64,000 bases of DNA from Ruminococcus sp. Lineage in GTDB: Bacteria; Bacillota; Clostridia; Oscillospirales; Ruminococcaceae. A program made the translations under genes and the position numbers. Each line of letters starts with the position of its first letter. Position 1 is the stretch's first letter. Below, piece by piece: positions 41,409 to 49,553 of this stretch. Below the pieces are notes generated by a model. It was not told the DNA's origin and did no database searches. It saw nothing but the letters and a program-made list of their open reading frames with translations. Where the stretch lies: contig JAFUQX010000069.1 of assembly GCA_017472145.1 (NCBI GenBank), forward strand, positions 35,231-99,230, read 5' to 3'.

Positions 41409-42389
41409 ATGCAAATCCGTAAAATTCTTTCCGTGCTGCTGGGGCTGACTCTGACAGCCGTTTTTACAGCAGGCTGTACCAGCGCCCCCGAGTCCCTTCC
41501 GGACTCCGGAAAAATCAGCGTGGTCTGCACCATTTTTCCTCAGTATGACTGGGCTGAGAATATCATCGGAGATACAGAAAATGCGGAGCTTACGCTTCTC
41601 TGTGACAATGGCGCTGATTTTCACAGCTACCAGCCGGGAACGGATGATATCGTTACGATCTCCACCTGTGATATACTGATTTATGTAGGCGGCGAAGCGG
41701 ACAGCTGGATCGAGGATGCTCTGGAAGGGGCTGTGAATCCGGATATGATCCCACTTTGTCTGACGGATATTATGGGCGGCTCTCTGAAGACAGAGGAATG
41801 CGAGGCCATTCTTGGAGAGCATGACCATGAACATGATCATGCGGAAGGCGAGTCCTTTGATGAGCATGTGTGGCTTTCCCTGAAGAATGCCATGCTGTTC
41901 AGCAATGCCATCAGCTCGGCCCTCTGCACACTGGATGCAGAGCATGCGGCGGAATATCAGACCAATGCAGAGGCGTACTTTTCCCTGCTTTCAGACATGG
42001 ATGCGGACTTCCAGGCTGAGGTTGATTCCTCTCAGCGAAAGACGCTGCTTTTTGCCGACCGCTATCCCTTCCGCTATCTGACAGAGGACTACGGCCTGAC
42101 GAGCTATGCGGCCTTTCCCGGATGCTCCTCAGAAACCGATGCCAGCTTTGAGACGATCGTGGAGCTGGCCAAGGCGGCTGACGAGCATCAGCTTCCGGCG
42201 GTGCTGACCATTGACGGCTCGAACAGCAGCATTGCAGATGCTGTGATTTCCAATACAGCGGAGAAGGATCAGAAGATTCTGACACTGAATTCCATGCAGT
42301 CCGTGCGCCGTGAGGATATGGACAGCGGTGTGACCTATTTATCCATAATGGAGGAAAATCTTGCTGTGCTCAGGGAGGCATTGAACTGA
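41409..42389 (+). CDS. znuA: Zinc/metal ABC transporter substrate-binding lipoprotein
   Basis: The 326-residue protein is a cluster A-I (ZnuA/AdcA/TroA) solute-binding lipoprotein: a signal peptide with lipobox ending at Cys23 (FTAGC), the VVCTIFPQYDWAENI start, a His-rich loop typical of zinc carriers (HDHEHDHAEGESFDEHVW), and candidate metal ligands in HSYQPG and DEHVW. It captures metal at the cell surface and delivers it to the ZnuB permease. The operon is znuA-znuC-znuB with its own Fur-box promoter. Confidence 0.88.
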   Translation: MQIRKILSVLLGLTLTAVFTAGCTSAPESLPDSGKISVVCTIFPQYDWAENIIGDTENAELTLLCDNGADFHSYQPGTDDIVTISTCDILIYVGGEADSWIEDALEGAVNPDMIPLCLTDIMGGSLKTEECEAILGEHDHEHDHAEGESFDEHVWLSLKNAMLFSNAISSALCTLDAEHAAEYQTNAEAYFSLLSDMDADFQAEVDSSQRKTLLFADRYPFRYLTEDYGLTSYAAFPGCSSETDASFETIVELAKAADEHQLPAVLTIDGSNSSIADAVISNTAEKDQKILTLNSMQSVRREDMDSGVTYLSIMEENLAVLREALN

Positions 42390-42390
42390 T

Positions 42391-43113
42391 ATGAGTATGC
42401 AATTATCCTGTGAAAATGTCACCCTCGGATATGAGGGAACGGTCGTTACGCAGAATCTTTCCTTCTCTGTAGACAGCGGCAGCTATCTGTGTATCGTGGG
42501 CGAAAACGGCAGCGGCAAGAGCACGCTGATCAAAGCCCTTCTTCATCTGAAAGCACCTGTCAGCGGGAAGATCACCCTGGGAGACGGGCTGAAGCAGAAG
42601 GAGATCGGCTATCTGCCCCAGCAGACCATTGTCCAGAGAGATTTCCCGGCTTCGGTACAGGAGATCGTTCTGTCCGGATGCCTGAACCGCTGCGGACTGC
42701 GTCCCTTCTACAGCCGTGCGGAGAAGAAGCTGGCGGAGAAAAATATGGAAAAGCTGCGGATTTCGGAGCTGAGGAATGCGTGCTATCGCTTCCTGTCCGG
42801 CGGCCAGCAGCAGCGTGTGCTTCTGGCACGTGCGCTCTGCGCTACCCAGAAGATGCTTCTTCTGGACGAGCCTGTGACAGGACTTGACCCCAAGGCGGCT
42901 TCGGAAATGTATGAGCTTGTGGCAAAAATCAACCGGGAGGATGGGATCACGGTGATCATGGTATCTCATGACATCGGGGCTGCTGTCCGCTATGCCACTC
43001 ATATCCTGCATCTGGGGCAGGAGCCTTTGTTCTTCGGCACAAAGGAGGACTACCTGAAAAGCGATATCGGACGGGCCTTTATTACCACATCGGGAGGGGA
43101 CAGGCATGAGTGA
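42391..43113 (+). CDS. znuC: Zinc/metal ABC transporter ATPase
   Basis: A 240-residue ABC ATPase with Walker A GENGSGKST (about residue 36), Q-loop LPQQ, signature LSGGQQQRVLLARAL and Walker B LLLDEPVTGLDP. It lies one base after znuA and overlaps the permease gene. The order substrate-binding protein, ATPase, permease is typical of zinc and manganese importers. Confidence 0.93.
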   Translation: MSMQLSCENVTLGYEGTVVTQNLSFSVDSGSYLCIVGENGSGKSTLIKALLHLKAPVSGKITLGDGLKQKEIGYLPQQTIVQRDFPASVQEIVLSGCLNRCGLRPFYSRAEKKLAEKNMEKLRISELRNACYRFLSGGQQQRVLLARALCATQKMLLLDEPVTGLDPKAASEMYELVAKINREDGITVIMVSHDIGAAVRYATHILHLGQEPLFFGTKEDYLKSDIGRAFITTSGGDRHE

Positions 43114-43960
43114 GATTTTGGAAACGCTGACATATTATTTTTCTTTTCCCTTTGTAAGGTATACCCTTCTGGTGGGCGTGCTGATCGCGCTTTGTTCTTC
43201 TCTGCTGGGCGTAACGCTGGTGCTCAAGCGCTTTTCCTTTATCGGGGATGGCTTGTCTCATGTGGCCTTTGGTGCGATCGCCATTGCCAGCGTGATGAAT
43301 CTGACCAATGAGATGCTGATCGTGCTTCCGGTAACGGTGGTGAGTGCCATTCTTCTGCTGATGACAGGGCAGAATACAAAAATCAAGGGAGATGCAGCCG
43401 TTGCGCTGATTTCGGTAGGCGCACTGGCGCTGGGCTATCTGCTGATGAATCTGTTTTCCACTTCCTCCAATGTATCAGGCGATGTGTGCAGCACGCTGTT
43501 CGGCTCGACCTCCATTCTGACTCTCACTGAGTCGGATGTATGGCTGTGTCTGGTGCTTTCTGTCCTGGTGATCAGTGTGTTCCTGCTGTTCTATCACAAG
43601 ATCTTCTCCGTGACCTTTGACGAAACCTTTGCATCCGCTACAGGTGTGCGTGCGCAGCTTTATAATCTGATGATCGCCGTGATCACAGCGATGATCATCG
43701 TACTGGCTATGAATCTGGTCGGTTCTTTGCTGATCTCCGCGCTGATCATCTGCCCGGCTCTGGCGGCCATGCGGATGTTCCATAGCTTCCGTGCGGTAAT
43801 TCTCAGCTCGGCGGTGATATCGGTGGTATGTGCGGTGGCCGGCATTCTGATCTCCATTCTGTTTTCTACACCGGTGGGTTCGACGATCGTGGCCGCAGAC
43901 ATTGCAGTATTTCTCGTGTTCTGGATTCTGGGAAGGGTCACAGGCCGCTCAAAGGCCTGA
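43106..43960 (+). CDS. znuB: Zinc/metal ABC transporter permease
   Basis: A 284-residue ABC-3 family permease with about eight membrane helices (RYTLLVGVLIALCSSLLGVTLVLKRFSFIGDGLSHVAFGAIA start; NLVGSLLISALIICPALAAMRMF near the end). It forms the membrane channel of the ZnuABC importer. It overlaps znuC by eight bases. Confidence 0.93.
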   Translation: MSEILETLTYYFSFPFVRYTLLVGVLIALCSSLLGVTLVLKRFSFIGDGLSHVAFGAIAIASVMNLTNEMLIVLPVTVVSAILLLMTGQNTKIKGDAAVALISVGALALGYLLMNLFSTSSNVSGDVCSTLFGSTSILTLTESDVWLCLVLSVLVISVFLLFYHKIFSVTFDETFASATGVRAQLYNLMIAVITAMIIVLAMNLVGSLLISALIICPALAAMRMFHSFRAVILSSAVISVVCAVAGILISILFSTPVGSTIVAADIAVFLVFWILGRVTGRSKA

Positions 43961-44232: not shown

Positions 44233-45774
44233 TTATAACAGCGGTGCAAACAGCCGGAGAATCTGGCTTTTCAGCCGCTTCAGGCCGGAAGGGTCTTTTT
44301 TATACTGCTGGGTGACCTCACAGCAGCGAGGGAGCGTCTGAAGAAAGTCCTCCTTGACATCGGCTACCGCAGGACAGTCTGCAAAAAAGACCGCATTTTC
44401 AAAGTGAAAGTACAAGCTGCGGTAGTCCAGATTGATCGTTCCCACCACCGCTGTCCGATCATCACAGACGCACTGCTTTGCATGAAGGAAGCCCGGTGTG
44501 AACTCATAGATCCGGATGCCGCTTTCTATCAGCTGATGATAGTAGGAGCGTGTCAGCTGATAGATGATCTTCTTGTCCGGAATGCCCGGTGTCAGGATCC
44601 GCACATCCACACCTCTCCGGGCTGCCAGAGTCAGCTCCCGGCTCATCTCATCGTCGATAATGAGATAGGGCGTCATGAACCAGATGTATTCCTGGGCATT
44701 CTTTACCATGTTCATGTACACGTTTTCGCCGAGATACACATCATCCAGCGGACAGTCTCCATAGGGCTGAACATATCCCGATGCTTTTTTATAAGGCTGC
44801 ACCTCCGGAAAATAAGGCGCAAAATTCCTGTCTGTTTCCCGGATGGTGTTCCACATTTCCAGAAACTGTACGGTCAGACTCTGTACCGCCTGTCCCTCCA
44901 GGCGCAGTCCCGTATCCTTCCACTCGCCATAGGGCTGTACGATGTTGAAATACTCATCTGCCAGATTATATCCGCCCGTAAAGCCTATCTGTCCGTCGAT
45001 GACGGTGATTTTCCGGTGATCCCGGTTATTCATGAATACATTGATCACCGGAACCAGGGGATTGAACACCCGGCACTGGATGCCGCTTTTTTCCATGCGT
45101 TTGATGAATTCCGGACTGATAAAGCCTACACTGCCCACATCGTCATAGATAATGCGCACCTCCACCCCGCTGGCCGCACGCTCCGACAGGATCTCCCGGA
45201 TCCGTCCAAAGGCCTTTGCGTCCTCAATGGCATGATATTCCATGAAAATGAAGGATCGTGCCTTTGAAAGTGCATCGGTCAGCGCATCCAGCGCCTTACA
45301 GGTATCTCCATAGAAGCATACTTCTGTATTGTCATAGGCCGGATACTGGCTGTCGTTCCGGATATAACGCATCTGTCCGGCCAGAGGGCGGCTCTGCTTT
45401 GCGGCCTGTTCAAGAATGGGCTCGCTGTCCGGCAGCCGCTTTCGGAGTGTGTCACCAATTCGTTCCAGCTGCTTCTGCTTGCGCTTGGTAATGGAGGAAT
45501 TGCCGGTCATCAGATACAGTACCAATCCAACCAGAGGAAAGGCCAGAATTGCAATGACCCAGGGCAGCTTGAAGGCCGCATTGTTATGCTTATGGATGAT
45601 CTCCAGAACCACCAGAATGGCAATTATATTTGTAATGGTGGATATCCAGGCACTGGACTGGTTGAATTTAAAGATAAGCAGCATCATCCATACCAGCTGG
45701 ATCAGCAGAAAAATCGCCACAAAAATGAGCCGGCTGATGCTGTTTTTTGTTGAATGGTCATATTTTCGTCCCAT
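44233..45774 (-). CDS. cls: Cardiolipin synthase
   Basis: The 513-residue membrane enzyme joins two phosphatidylglycerols into cardiolipin. It has two N-terminal membrane helices (about 15-60), a PLD-like body, and both HKD motifs: HRKITVIDGQIGFTGGYNLADEY and HAKQCVCDDRTAVVGTINLDYRSLY. Length is normal for the Cls family. The start is the ATG after AAAGGAAG. Transcribed alone from a promoter opposite to the NifU-like/GGGtGRT pair. Confidence 0.93.
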   Translation of the reverse strand: MGRKYDHSTKNSISRLIFVAIFLLIQLVWMMLLIFKFNQSSAWISTITNIIAILVVLEIIHKHNNAAFKLPWVIAILAFPLVGLVLYLMTGNSSITKRKQKQLERIGDTLRKRLPDSEPILEQAAKQSRPLAGQMRYIRNDSQYPAYDNTEVCFYGDTCKALDALTDALSKARSFIFMEYHAIEDAKAFGRIREILSERAASGVEVRIIYDDVGSVGFISPEFIKRMEKSGIQCRVFNPLVPVINVFMNNRDHRKITVIDGQIGFTGGYNLADEYFNIVQPYGEWKDTGLRLEGQAVQSLTVQFLEMWNTIRETDRNFAPYFPEVQPYKKASGYVQPYGDCPLDDVYLGENVYMNMVKNAQEYIWFMTPYLIIDDEMSRELTLAARRGVDVRILTPGIPDKKIIYQLTRSYYHQLIESGIRIYEFTPGFLHAKQCVCDDRTAVVGTINLDYRSLYFHFENAVFFADCPAVADVKEDFLQTLPRCCEVTQQYKKDPSGLKRLKSQILRLFAPLL

Positions 45775-45815
45775 GGAAATTCTTCCTTTCAGAATGATAG
45801 ATCGATATAGTAGAT

Positions 45816-45844
45816 ATTATAGCACATTTTTCCGGCGGGTTCAA
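45816..45844 (-). promoter_or_regulatory. Promoter of cls
   Basis: On the minus strand TTGAAC, 17 bases, TATAAT, some 40 bases from the cls start. It diverges from the promoter at 45890. Confidence 0.75.
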
Positions 45845-45889
45845 CACCCTGTTATTTTTTAAAGAAAGGAAAAGTTTTTGAAAAAATGC

Positions 45890-45918
45890 TTGATTCCAAA
45901 GAGGAAATGTAGTATAAT
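45890..45918 (+). promoter_or_regulatory. Promoter of the NifU-like/GGGtGRT operon
   Basis: TTGATT, 17 bases, TATAAT. The short leader contains an ACTGTG...CACAGT hairpin before the ribosome site AAAGGAG. Confidence 0.75.
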
Positions 45919-45971
45919 GAAACTGTGTGCTGAAACTGCACAGTATGTCCTATTACGAAAGGAGTATAAAA

Positions 45972-46664
45972 ATGATTTATTCAAACGAAGTAAATGAAAT
46001 GTGCTGCGTAAAACAAGGCGTAAACCATGGTGCCGCTCCGATCCCGGAGGAAGCAAAGTGGGTAAAGGCTAAGGAAATCAGCGATATTTCCGGCTTCACA
46101 CACGGTGTGGGCTGGTGTGCACCGCAGCAGGGTACATGTAAGCTGTCCCTGAACGTAAAGGAAGGCGTGATCCAGGAGTGTCTGGTTGAGACCATCGGAT
46201 GTTCCGGTATGACACATTCCGCTGCCATGGCTTCTGAGATCCTGCCGGGCCGTACCATTCTGGAAGCACTGAACACAGACCTGGTTTGTGATGCGATCAA
46301 CACTGCTATGAGAGAGCTGTTCCTGCAGATCGTATATGGCCGTACACAGAGCGCATTCTCCGAGGGCGGTCTGGTGATCGGCGCTGGCCTGGAGGATCTG
46401 GGTAAGGGCAACCGTTCTCAGGTTGGTACAATGTATGGTACTCTGGCCAAGGGCCCTCGCTATCTGGAGATGACAGACGGTTATGTAACTGCTCTGGCTC
46501 TGAATGAAGATGATGAGATCATCGGCTACAAGTTTGTAAACTTCGGCAAGATGATGGACTTCATCAAGGCTGGCGACGATGCGAACACTGCATATGAAAA
46601 GGCACAGGGTCAGTATGGCCGTGTTGCTGATGCTGTGAAGCTCATTGACCCGAGAAAAGAATAA
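45972..46664 (+). CDS. NifU-like iron-sulfur scaffold-type protein, partner of GGGtGRT
   Basis: The 230-residue protein resembles the N-terminal IscU/NifU scaffold fold. Cysteines at 11, 12, 49 (GWCAPQQGTC), 56, 70 and 77 (ETIGCSGMTHSAAMA) could hold a cluster or metal; the GCSGMTHSAAMASEILPG stretch is close to the GCAISIASSSMMTE region of IscU. The C-terminal half is extra and not recognised. It lies 23 bases upstream of the GGGtGRT gene and has the same strong codon use (frequent CTG, GGT, ATC), which suggests high expression. It is usually annotated as an iron-sulfur cluster assembly scaffold protein. Its biochemical role is not established. Confidence 0.75.
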   Translation: MIYSNEVNEMCCVKQGVNHGAAPIPEEAKWVKAKEISDISGFTHGVGWCAPQQGTCKLSLNVKEGVIQECLVETIGCSGMTHSAAMASEILPGRTILEALNTDLVCDAINTAMRELFLQIVYGRTQSAFSEGGLVIGAGLEDLGKGNRSQVGTMYGTLAKGPRYLEMTDGYVTALALNEDDEIIGYKFVNFGKMMDFIKAGDDANTAYEKAQGQYGRVADAVKLIDPRKE

Positions 46665-46687
46665 GAAATCGAAGGAGGACGAACATC

Positions 46688-47698
46688 ATGGCATTGTTTG
46701 AATCTTATGAGAGAAGAGAAAAGCAGATTCTGGAAGTTCTGAACAGCTACGGCATCAGCACGATCGAAGAAGCTGCTGAAATTACAAAGGCTGCTGGTCT
46801 GGATGTATATACAATGGTAGAAGGCATTCAGCCGATCTGCTTTGAGAACGCAAAGTGGGCCTATACAGTAGGCGCAGCGATCGCAATCAAGAAGGGCTGC
46901 CGCAGAGCTGCTGACGCTGCTGCTGCGATCGGTGAGGGCCTTCAGGCTTTCTGCATTCCGGGTTCTGTAGCAGATCAGCGTAAGGTTGGTCTGGGTCATG
47001 GTAACCTGGGCAAGATGCTGCTGGAGGAGGAGACCAAGTGCTTTGCATTCCTGGCTGGTCACGAATCCTTCGCTGCTGCTGAGGGTGCGATCGGTATTGC
47101 TGAGAAGGCCAACAAGGTTCGTCAGGAGCCGCTGAGAGTTATCCTGAACGGCCTGGGCAAGGATGCTGCACAGATCATCGCAAGAATCAATGGCTTTACA
47201 TATGTTGAGACTGAGATGGACTACTACACCGGCGAGGTTAAGGAAGTATTCCGCAAGGCTTATTCTGAGGGCCTGCGTGCAAAGGTTAACTGCTACGGTG
47301 CAAACGATGTAACCGAGGGCGTTGCGATCATGTGGAAGGAAGGCGTAGACGTTTCCATCACAGGCAACTCCACCAACCCGACCCGTTTCCAGTACCCGGT
47401 AGCTGGTACTTATAAGAAGGAATGCCTGGATAAGGGCAAGAAGTACTTCTCTGTAGCATCCGGCGGCGGTACTGGACGTACACTGCATCCGGATAACATG
47501 GCTGCTGGTCCGGCTTCTTATGGTATGACCGATACACTGGGCCGTATGCACTCCGATGCTCAGTTCGCAGGTTCTTCTTCCGTTCCGGCTCACGTTGAGA
47601 TGATGGGCCTGATCGGCATGGGCAACAACCCCATGGTAGGCGCAACAGTTGCTGTTGCCGTATCCGTTGAGGAAGCTGCTAAGGCTGGCAAGTTCTAA
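46688..47698 (+). CDS. GGGtGRT family protein
   Basis: The 336-residue cytoplasmic protein carries the eponymous motif in VASGGGTGRTLHPDN at about residue 258. Other recognisable stretches are YERREKQILEVLNSYGI at the N-terminus, GEGLQAFCIPGSVADQRKVGLGHGNLG and SVPAHVEMMGLIGMGNNPMVGATVAVAV near the end. There are few cysteines, no signal peptide and no membrane helix. The family is named for the motif and has no firmly established activity to my knowledge. It is always interesting when it sits, as here, with a NifU-like gene; that suggests metallo-cofactor or small-molecule handling. It is preceded by GGAGGACG and followed by a strong terminator, so the pair forms a two-gene transcript. Confidence 0.88.
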   Translation: MALFESYERREKQILEVLNSYGISTIEEAAEITKAAGLDVYTMVEGIQPICFENAKWAYTVGAAIAIKKGCRRAADAAAAIGEGLQAFCIPGSVADQRKVGLGHGNLGKMLLEEETKCFAFLAGHESFAAAEGAIGIAEKANKVRQEPLRVILNGLGKDAAQIIARINGFTYVETEMDYYTGEVKEVFRKAYSEGLRAKVNCYGANDVTEGVAIMWKEGVDVSITGNSTNPTRFQYPVAGTYKKECLDKGKKYFSVASGGGTGRTLHPDNMAAGPASYGMTDTLGRMHSDAQFAGSSSVPAHVEMMGLIGMGNNPMVGATVAVAVSVEEAAKAGKF

Positions 47699-47737
47699 GG
47701 AAAATGCGTGATATTTCACATGTAATATAAATGCATG

Positions 47738-47772
47738 GAGCACCGTGGCTGTTTGGCTGCGGTGCTCTTTTT
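47738..47772 (+). terminator. Intrinsic terminator of the GGGtGRT operon
   Basis: GAGCACCG / CGGTGCTC stem with a loop of about 14 bases and a TTTTT tail. Confidence 0.85.
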
Positions 47773-47817
47773 GGTTCTGTTCTGAAAATTTTGGGGGATA
47801 AATTGTAGTTTCCTTTT

Positions 47818-48423
47818 TTAATATCCTAATTTTTCATCAATAAGGATCACTTCAAATTCACCTGTCATCGGCTTCTCCCACAGCACGGACAGGCCGCGGC
47901 AGATTCTGTCAGGGCTCTTGCAATCATAGCAGCGGTCTGCACGGACTGCACAAGGCGTTTTCATACCGAGCCTTTTGGCATTGAGCGGCGCAGCAATATT
48001 TCTTGCACGCCAAAGTGCGCTGTCATAGTCCTTTTCAATTTTGTTCGCACCGGCAATCAGGTATACCTTTTCATGTCCGTAAAAAATGGCGGCAACACGG
48101 TTGCAGTTTCCATCGATGTTAATGATTTCCCCCGTTTCTGCAATGCCATTGACGGAGGAAATATAGATGTCCGATGCATTTGCTGCAAGGCGTACTTCTT
48201 TGCTGTTTCGGCCCTGTGGAATCCGCTGATGCCAGTGTACCGTATTATGCGATGCAAGCATGTCATAAAGCCCCATTTCTTCAACCGTCATGGAGCCTCC
48301 GATGCCAATGCTCTTTCCATCGATCTGAGCATTCAGATATGCTGCGGCTTCTTCCTTTGTGTCAAAACAGGATACCTTATATCCGCATTCTTCCAGTTTT
48401 TTTCTTAAAGCTTCATAATTCAT
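47818..48423 (-). CDS. LUD domain protein (lactate-utilisation type)
   Basis: The 201-residue protein has the LUD (DUF162) pattern: SIGIGGSMTVEEMGLYDML, then ANASDIYISSVNGIAETGEIINIDGNCNRVAAIFYGHEKVYLIAGANKI and a Cys-containing end (DRCYDCKSPDRICRG). LUD proteins occur in LutC and the LutB N-terminus of lactate oxidation, but single-domain copies like this are widespread in Clostridia and of uncertain role. The C-terminal cysteines might bind a metal. It is monocistronic, with TACAGGAGG before the start. Confidence 0.88.
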   Translation of the reverse strand: MNYEALRKKLEECGYKVSCFDTKEEAAAYLNAQIDGKSIGIGGSMTVEEMGLYDMLASHNTVHWHQRIPQGRNSKEVRLAANASDIYISSVNGIAETGEIINIDGNCNRVAAIFYGHEKVYLIAGANKIEKDYDSALWRARNIAAPLNAKRLGMKTPCAVRADRCYDCKSPDRICRGLSVLWEKPMTGEFEVILIDEKLGY

Positions 48424-48558: not shown

Positions 48559-48620
48559 GTGTGGCCGACCGGCTAGATGGTGCTTACAGCGCTACAGTTG
48601 GATGATTTCTGATTTGCATG

Positions 48621-48649
48621 TTGAAATTTGGAAAAGAATGTGATATAAT
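48621..48649 (+). promoter_or_regulatory. Promoter of the alpha/beta hydrolase gene
   Basis: TTGAAA, 17 bases, TATAAT, about 35 bases before the ATG. Confidence 0.75.
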
Positions 48650-48686
48650 AAGCACACTGATAAATTGGAATTCAGAGGAGATAAAA

Positions 48687-49553
48687 ATGATTGATTATGG
48701 TAGAAAAATTAAGGTTGGAAGCGGTCAGCTCAATGTCTATACGGAGGGACAGGGGAACAAAACCATTGTGTTCATGGCCGGGCAGTTTGTTACCTCGCCA
48801 GTGCTTGAGTACAGACCTCTTTACAGGAAGTTATCCGACAAATGCAGAATCGTTGTGATTGAAAAGTCCGGATACGGTGAAAGCACAGACACCGGGACGC
48901 CAAGAACTGTTGAAAACATGGTGAATGAGAGCCGATATGTACTTGAGCAGGCCGGATTGAAACCTCCATATGTGCTTGTTCCCCATTCTTATTCGGGATT
49001 TGAAGCGATATACTGGGCCAATACCTTTCCGGATGAGGTCGAGGCGGTGTTCAGCATAGATATGGGAATTCCCGGAACAGCAATAAAAATGGAGAAGGAG
49101 CTTCCTCAGGATAAGAAATCGGCTTTGAACGAGAAAAACAGAAGGTTCTATCAAAAAATTCAAAAGCGAGGGGTGCTTGCAAGGATCGTAAGAAAATGGA
49201 CGGTCGATGCTACAGGCCTGATGTCATCCGATCATCTGACAGCAGAAGAAAAGGAGCTTTATTCTGAGCTTTTTTATAAAAATCTATCCAACGATGCATT
49301 TTTTGAAGAAGCGATGAAAATGACCGAGAACGCAAAAGCAGCAGAAGCAACAGGAAAACTGCGTGTTCCTGCGTTTTTCTATATCAGCGATATGAAAATT
49401 CGTATCACTGGCACAACATGGCGTGAGGAAGCAATAAAATATGCTGAAAGTATCGGCGCAAAGTATCAGCTTACAGACCAGGGCCATAATATGCATTCCC
49501 GGATCTCCCATCAGATAGTAGAGGATCTTCTGTTCTTTCTCGGAACGATTTAA
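48687..49553 (+). CDS. Alpha/beta hydrolase
   Basis: The 288-residue protein has the alpha/beta-hydrolase order: an oxyanion-side loop FMAGQFVTSP, the KSGYGESTD turn, the nucleophile elbow HSYSG (Ser103, non-canonical His for the first Gly), and a His near the end in DQGHNMHSR. No signal peptide is present. Substrate cannot be predicted (an esterase, lactonase or haloalkane-type hydrolase are all possible). It stands alone between a LUD gene and the ABC-F leader. The codon use is more AT-rich than in the surrounding core genes. Confidence 0.8.
   Translation: MIDYGRKIKVGSGQLNVYTEGQGNKTIVFMAGQFVTSPVLEYRPLYRKLSDKCRIVVIEKSGYGESTDTGTPRTVENMVNESRYVLEQAGLKPPYVLVPHSYSGFEAIYWANTFPDEVEAVFSIDMGIPGTAIKMEKELPQDKKSALNEKNRRFYQKIQKRGVLARIVRKWTVDATGLMSSDHLTAEEKELYSELFYKNLSNDAFFEEAMKMTENAKAAEATGKLRVPAFFYISDMKIRITGTTWREEAIKYAESIGAKYQLTDQGHNMHSRISHQIVEDLLFFLGTI

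What the first reader, a model, noticed from the sequence alone, without database searches (positions are those of the whole stretch)
45890..47772. Two-gene NifU-like / GGGtGRT operon of unknown chemistry
A self-contained transcript (promoter at 45890, leader hairpin, two genes, terminator at 47738) encodes a NifU/IscU-like protein with cysteines at 11, 12, 49, 56, 70 and 77 and a GGGtGRT protein with its eponymous motif near residue 258. Codon use is that of highly expressed genes. The pair is not near any known Fe-S assembly, nif or suf genes. Inference: the scaffold-like protein supplies or holds a metal cluster used with the GGGtGRT protein, forming a dedicated enzyme or cofactor system.
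Basis: partly seen in the sequence, partly recalled or inferred. Interest (0 to 1): 0.8.

Follow-up and report, generated by a model that had tools for sequence, protein, structure and literature searches.

The report
Inseparable NifU-like/GGGtGRT iron-linked gene pair
Two neighbouring genes that stay together across distant bacteria, and are abundant in gut anaerobes, probably make one two-part iron-dependent protein whose chemistry nobody has worked out; the sequences now say which residues to test.

Summary
A self-contained unit (promoter-like 45890, terminator 47737-47768, strong codon bias) encodes a divergent IscU/NifU-like protein (45972-46664) and a PF14057 GGGtGRT protein (46688-47698). 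Co-occurrence: the same 19 of 299 phylum genomes carry each family; among 99 relatives, 71 of 71 GGGtGRT-positive genomes have the partner, adjacent in 70, the 71st being split by contig ends. The same order was seen in four phyla. GGGtGRT has no invariant cysteine. CGD, LPP and HC motifs of true scaffolds are absent (0 of 113). Two published datasets show both members lower under iron limitation. Best reading (0.45): a two-subunit, probably Fe-S, enzyme whose cluster sits on the IscU-like subunit; a dedicated carrier, a Zn/persulfide protein or an iron store are not excluded. Side finding: the 3' end of the GGGtGRT gene appears to be an integration site for tyrosine-integrase elements.

The parts
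45890..45918 (+). sigma-70-type promoter-like site TTGATT-17-TATAAT
   Evidence: 10 of 12 matches; similar boxes in four relatives by eye
45926..45942 (+). weak 5-pair leader hairpin
   Evidence: z -2.0 for the leader, no conservation seen
45972..46664 (+). NifU/IscU-like gene, 230 aa, divergent U-type domain plus a C-terminal part that matches nothing
46116..46118 (+). codon of Cys49, invariant
   Evidence: 113 of 113 sequences
46200..46202 (+). codon of Cys77, invariant, aligned with the second cysteine of canonical NifU
   Evidence: 113 of 113 sequences
46688..47698 (+). GGGtGRT gene (PF14057), 336 aa
   Evidence: E 2.1e-189, positions 1-327 of 327
47462..47482 (+). GGGTGRT motif, residues 259-265
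   Evidence: exact motif in 112 of 113 sequences
47737..47768 (+). intrinsic-terminator-like hairpin
   Evidence: 14 pairs, -24.5 kcal/mol, z -4.8

Best explanation
The two genes encode the two subunits of one iron-dependent protein, most likely an Fe-S enzyme of mainly anaerobic bacteria. The IscU-type domain, which elsewhere builds and passes on clusters, here keeps a cluster as a fixed cofactor held by Cys49, Cys77 and Cys106, which would leave one iron open. GGGtGRT, which has no invariant cysteine but many invariant polar residues (His104, His125, Glu126, Lys158, Asp159, Arg264, Asp269, Asp282, Arg286, Asp290, His302), supplies the substrate pocket. Shown here: obligate pairing, three invariant cysteines, a partial but real IscU relationship. 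Taken from papers: joint fall under iron limitation, high abundance. Inferred: the complex, the cluster, the open iron, catalysis. The substrate is unknown.
For: Same 19 of 299 genomes carry both; 71 of 71 and adjacent in 70 of 71; 124 of 127 fetched loci, the other three starting at the GGGtGRT gene or inside it. Profile relation to canonical NifU, hhalign 94% and PDB profile E 2.5e-5. Cys49/77/106 in 113 of 113, GGGtGRT cysteines all variable. Both proteins higher in iron excess in C. pasteurianum, both genes 11- to 12.8-fold down in iron-depleted B. thetaiotaomicron. 18 of 19 pair genomes also have a canonical U-type gene, so the pair is not the ordinary scaffold.
Against: No metal, complex or activity has been shown. 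The three cysteines were not shown to be close in space (structure prediction off). GGGtGRT has no detectable relative that is an enzyme. In the C. pasteurianum table iron excess also raises proteins without iron such as ribosomal proteins, EF-Tu and GAPDH, so the response may partly follow growth. Invariant cysteines could bind zinc.
Confidence: 0.45

Rival explanations
1. Dedicated Fe-S carrier or assembly factor: the NifU-like protein builds or carries a cluster and hands it on; GGGtGRT is its client, release factor or chaperone.
For: IscU-type core with the second cysteine kept; in one Collinsella record the pair follows a SufD-SufS-SufU stretch, with a transposase gene between.
Against: CGD, LPP and HC motifs absent in 113 of 113. 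Coexists with different housekeeping sets: SufBD in 12 of 19, none in 7. Falls, not rises, in iron shortage. High abundance in gut proteomes is unusual for a helper.
Confidence: 0.25
2. SufU-like zinc or persulfide protein: the cysteines bind zinc or carry sulfur, and GGGtGRT accepts the sulfur.
For: Profile match to SufU-type proteins of related genomes, hhalign 90% over 48 columns.
Against: CGD and WHT, present in 7 of 7 SufU-type sequences of pair-bearing genomes, are absent in 113 of 113; expression follows iron.
Confidence: 0.12
3. Iron-sulfur store or buffer, functionally like IssA, filled when iron is plentiful.
For: Abundant and higher with iron; precedent for Fe-S storage as thioferrate (PMC5524996, start of abstract only).
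Against: A store would not need the near-invariant GGGtGRT sequence (A6 mean column identity 78% across four phyla). No resemblance to IssA was tested.
Confidence: 0.1
4. Fold relic without metal: the U-type domain is only a structural partner of GGGtGRT and the cysteines serve another purpose.
For: Canonical first and third ligand sites lost.
Against: Three cysteines invariant in 113 of 113; joint iron response in two phyla.
Confidence: 0.08

Closest known systems
IscU / NifU N-terminal domain (PF01592, TIGR03419)
   Same: Related core over residues about 34-104, GC at the second cysteine.
   Different: No CGD, LPP or HC in 113 of 113 against 8 of 8 in canonical NifU of pair-bearing genomes (LPxxK for LPP); Cys49 three to four residues before the canonical site; Cys106 without counterpart; C-terminal part of about 100 residues that matches nothing; always beside GGGtGRT.
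SufU (TIGR01994)
   Same: Related core over 48 columns.
   Different: No CGD or WHT.
PF14057 GGGtGRT protein
   Same: Full-length member.
   Different: Nothing. The family has a name but I found no described function: 17 papers hold the word, and passages of 8 of them give none beyond abundance lists, iron response and a software label as putative virulence factor in C. innocuum (PMC9942572, passage).

Membership tests
IscU/NifU scaffold | sequence relation of the U-type core | tested here: met
   hhalign 94% with A7 over columns 34-104; PDB profile E 2.5e-5; below Pfam and NCBIfam cut-offs for the window protein
IscU/NifU scaffold | CGD first ligand motif | tested here: not met
   0 of 113, against 8 of 8 canonical
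IscU/NifU scaffold | second cysteine in GC | tested here: met
   113 of 113
IscU/NifU scaffold | third cysteine in HC, after LPxxK | tested here: not met
   HC and LPP 0 of 113; forced alignment puts the site in a gap. A plain GLP is present in 64 of 113
IscU/NifU scaffold | assembles and transfers Fe-S clusters | not testable with these tools
   needs protein
SufU | CGD and WHT stretches of SufU-type genes in pair-bearing genomes | tested here: not met
   0 of 113 against 7 of 7
SufU | zinc binding | not testable with these tools
   needs protein
PF14057 GGGtGRT | full-length profile match above the cut-off | tested here: met
   628.8 bits, cut-off 27, positions 1-327 of 327
IssA-like store | sequence relation to IssA | not tested
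   no IssA sequence was compared

The most novel reading that the evidence does not exclude
An IscU scaffold has been permanently captured as the cluster-bearing subunit of an unrecognised two-subunit Fe-S enzyme with a new GGGtGRT catalytic partner, an abundant uncharacterised activity of gut anaerobes.
Probability: 0.4. Interest if true: 0.85.

Novelty: new variant of a known kind. Interest (0 to 1): 0.62.

Why it matters
GGGtGRT keeps appearing in rumen, chicken and human gut proteome lists without a function. Tying it to one IscU-like partner, three named cysteines and an iron response turns an unknown into an experiment: purify the pair without oxygen, count iron and sulfide, change three residues. 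If the partner keeps its cluster, it would show how a scaffold can become an enzyme subunit.

Tried and rejected
Remote relatives of GGGtGRT were sought by PDB profile (one hit, E 0.093), PHROGs (best E 0.045) and Pfam over 31 members (all 31 match PF14057; besides it eight families in one or two members each, best E 0.0049); I take these as chance. The two partners are not alike (hhalign 0.1%). No third gene goes with the pair: in the neighbour scan of 94 loci the commonest other families occur in 26 and 23 loci, with median distances of about 2.0 and 1.6 kb and nearly always upstream (by recall the first is a type IA topoisomerase). One short cluster of antisense ORFs was ignored. One Rfam match in 45700-47900, E 3.8, well below its gathering score. 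All 19 pair genomes have FeFe-hydrogenase, but so have 237 of 299 (chance about 0.01), so within this phylum the link to anaerobic iron metabolism is weak. Literature searches for the B. thetaiotaomicron locus tags, NifU plus abundance terms, NifU-related in clostridia and NifU in Bacteroides stress papers added no further paper that I recognised as about this pair; a search of full text for PF14057 and related terms and one on minimal Fe-S systems were seen as listings only. Of the 17 papers holding GGGtGRT, nine were judged by title only, several looking like DNA primer matches. In one search four loci (L058, L093, L117, L120) showed a stop inside my extended GGGtGRT frame; I dropped them without looking into why. 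The counts of 113 are the window plus 112 loci (73 named genomes, 28 unnamed, 3 viral, 8 plasmid records); window duplicates (L001, L011, L024) and cut or flagged loci were left out, and many of the rest are close relatives. The alternative that the third ligand is acidic (positions 141-142 are E/D in 113 of 113) was noted but cannot be decided. A census in other phyla was not possible; the four-phylum statement rests on eight of ten plasmid-collection hits, several being fragments of assemblies labelled plasmid.

Full report
What is there. The unit reads promoter-like site (45890-45918), weak leader hairpin (45926-45942), NifU-like gene (45972-46664), GGGtGRT gene (46688-47698), terminator-like hairpin (47737-47768). 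Around it lie a ZnuA/ABC/ABC-3 metal-uptake operon (41409-43960), a PLD-family gene (44233-45774, other strand), a LUD-domain gene (47818-48423, other strand) and an alpha/beta hydrolase (48618-49553). Codon adaptation to the genome's EF-Tu is 0.595 and 0.650, against a median of 0.26 over 55 mechanical ORFs, best other ORF 0.549.

The pair is inseparable in what I could see. PF14057 occurs in 19 of 299 genomes sampled across the phylum; the partner profile, at E 1e-12, occurs in 19 of 299, the same handles. Among 99 relatives GGGtGRT is in 71 and the partner in 74. The two samples overlap (G000, G069 and G270 are in both). All 71 have the partner; in 70 it lies upstream on the same strand with 17-141 nt between the matched stretches, and the 71st (G368) has its pieces at two contig ends. 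The three partner-only genomes have a partial gene at a contig end, one of them (G307) with a stop inside. Of 127 fetched loci with GGGtGRT, 124 show the partner directly upstream; the other three (L059, L109, L110) begin at or inside the GGGtGRT gene; three of the 127 are the window itself. Ten plasmid-collection records hold GGGtGRT; the eight I fetched all have the partner next to it: five Bacteroidota, one Actinomycetota, one Pseudomonadota, one Bacillota. Trees of the two proteins correlate (r 0.81 over 47 taxa; 1000 permutations at most 0.26), though common descent alone gives part of this.

The NifU-like protein is a real but off-pattern relative of IscU. For the window protein the family matches are below cut-offs. 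Profiles are firmer: hhalign 94% with eight canonical NifU of pair-bearing genomes over columns 34-104, 90% with seven SufU-type proteins, PDB profile E 2.5e-5. All 32 members of A5 match PF01592 under a loose limit of E 10, best 7.2e-6. Cys77 aligns with the canonical second cysteine. The canonical first site (CGD) falls in a gap, Cys49 standing three to four residues earlier, and a forced, low-confidence alignment puts the canonical third site in a gap too. CGD, LPP and HC occur in 0 of 113. Cys49, Cys77 and Cys106 are in 113 of 113; Cys56 in 110, Cys11 in 100, Cys12 in 14, Cys70 in 3.

GGGtGRT has no other recognisable relative. All its six window cysteines vary, while His104, His125, Glu126, Lys158, Asp159, Arg264, Asp269, Asp282, Arg286, Asp290 and His302 are in 113 of 113. 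The name-giving motif is exact in 112 of 113.

Published expression. C. pasteurianum (PMC5395762, passage and one section): F502_05017 (NifU-related) and F502_05012 (GGGtGRT) are both higher in iron excess, 2.4- and 3.7-fold (two spots) and 7.1-fold early, 1.6-, 2.9- and 2.2-fold late, as I read the flattened table. PFOR, hydrogenase, aconitase and rubrerythrin behave alike there, but so do several proteins without iron (ribosomal proteins, EF-Tu, GAPDH). B. thetaiotaomicron (PMC10434189, passages): BT0173-BT0174 fall 11- to 12.8-fold in iron depletion. The chicken caecum paper (PMC11204068, passages) calls GGGtGRT highly expressed in vivo in distant taxa. A rumen paper (PMC7035244, passages) and a colorectal cancer paper (PMC13041051, passage) list GGGtGRT and a NifU protein together; whether that NifU is this partner I did not check.

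Housekeeping machinery. SufBD matches occur in 12 of 19; the window's own genome has none and has two canonical NifU genes. The pair therefore coexists with different machines.

Reading. Two subunits, one function, iron-linked, not the housekeeping scaffold. Invariant cysteines on one partner and an enzyme-like invariant set on the other favour a two-subunit Fe-S enzyme (0.45) over a dedicated carrier (0.25), a Zn or persulfide protein (0.12), a store (0.1) or a fold relic (0.08). That iron shortage lowers the pair speaks against an emergency scaffold.

Side finding. Short extra copies of only the 3' end of GGGtGRT (28-54 codons) occur in six unnamed relatives and in L130. In L131 the copy lies 8.4 kb from the gene, with 27 identical nt ending at the stop codon. 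Among 81 loci with at least 1.5 kb downstream, 11 have a match to one of nine integrase queries starting within 1.5 kb: 6 of 68 named-genome loci, 4 of 5 viral, 1 of 8 plasmid records; eight of the 11 are the source of a query. Pfam finds Phage_integrase in 8 of 10 ORFs tested, an arm-binding domain in one (L130), nothing in one (L131). Several of these integrases share under 30% identity, so different elements seem to use the same site. No paper on this was sought beyond the GGGtGRT listing.

Noticed in passing
3' end of the GGGtGRT gene in L030, L036, L066, L078, L089, L099, L106-L109, L130, L131, L132: Likely integration site: integrase ORFs within 1.5 kb downstream in 11 of 81 loci and displaced copies of the last 28-54 codons beyond inserted elements. 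L131 has the displaced copy but no recognised integrase.
   Followed up: partly
window 41409-43960: ZnuA-type binding protein, ABC ATPase and ABC-3 permease, a metal-uptake operon about 2 kb upstream of the pair; no sign that it belongs to it.
   Followed up: no
G207:C211 and G207:C94 (L015, L021): One genome holds two copies of the whole pair; the second GGGtGRT is the most divergent in the phylum sample and reads GGGIGRT.
   Followed up: no
L125, Collinsella aerofaciens NZ_OY725717.1: The pair lies downstream of SufD, SufS and SufU genes with a transposase gene between.
   Followed up: no
L123, Parabacteroides distasonis NZ_OY725823.1, 4800-4991: A small annotated ORF sits between the two genes, with TlpA, OsmC and nitroreductase genes around.
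   Followed up: no
G270: A genome rated 100% complete with no canonical NifU/SufU-type match, only the pair's own NifU-like gene and one weak SufBD match.
   Followed up: no
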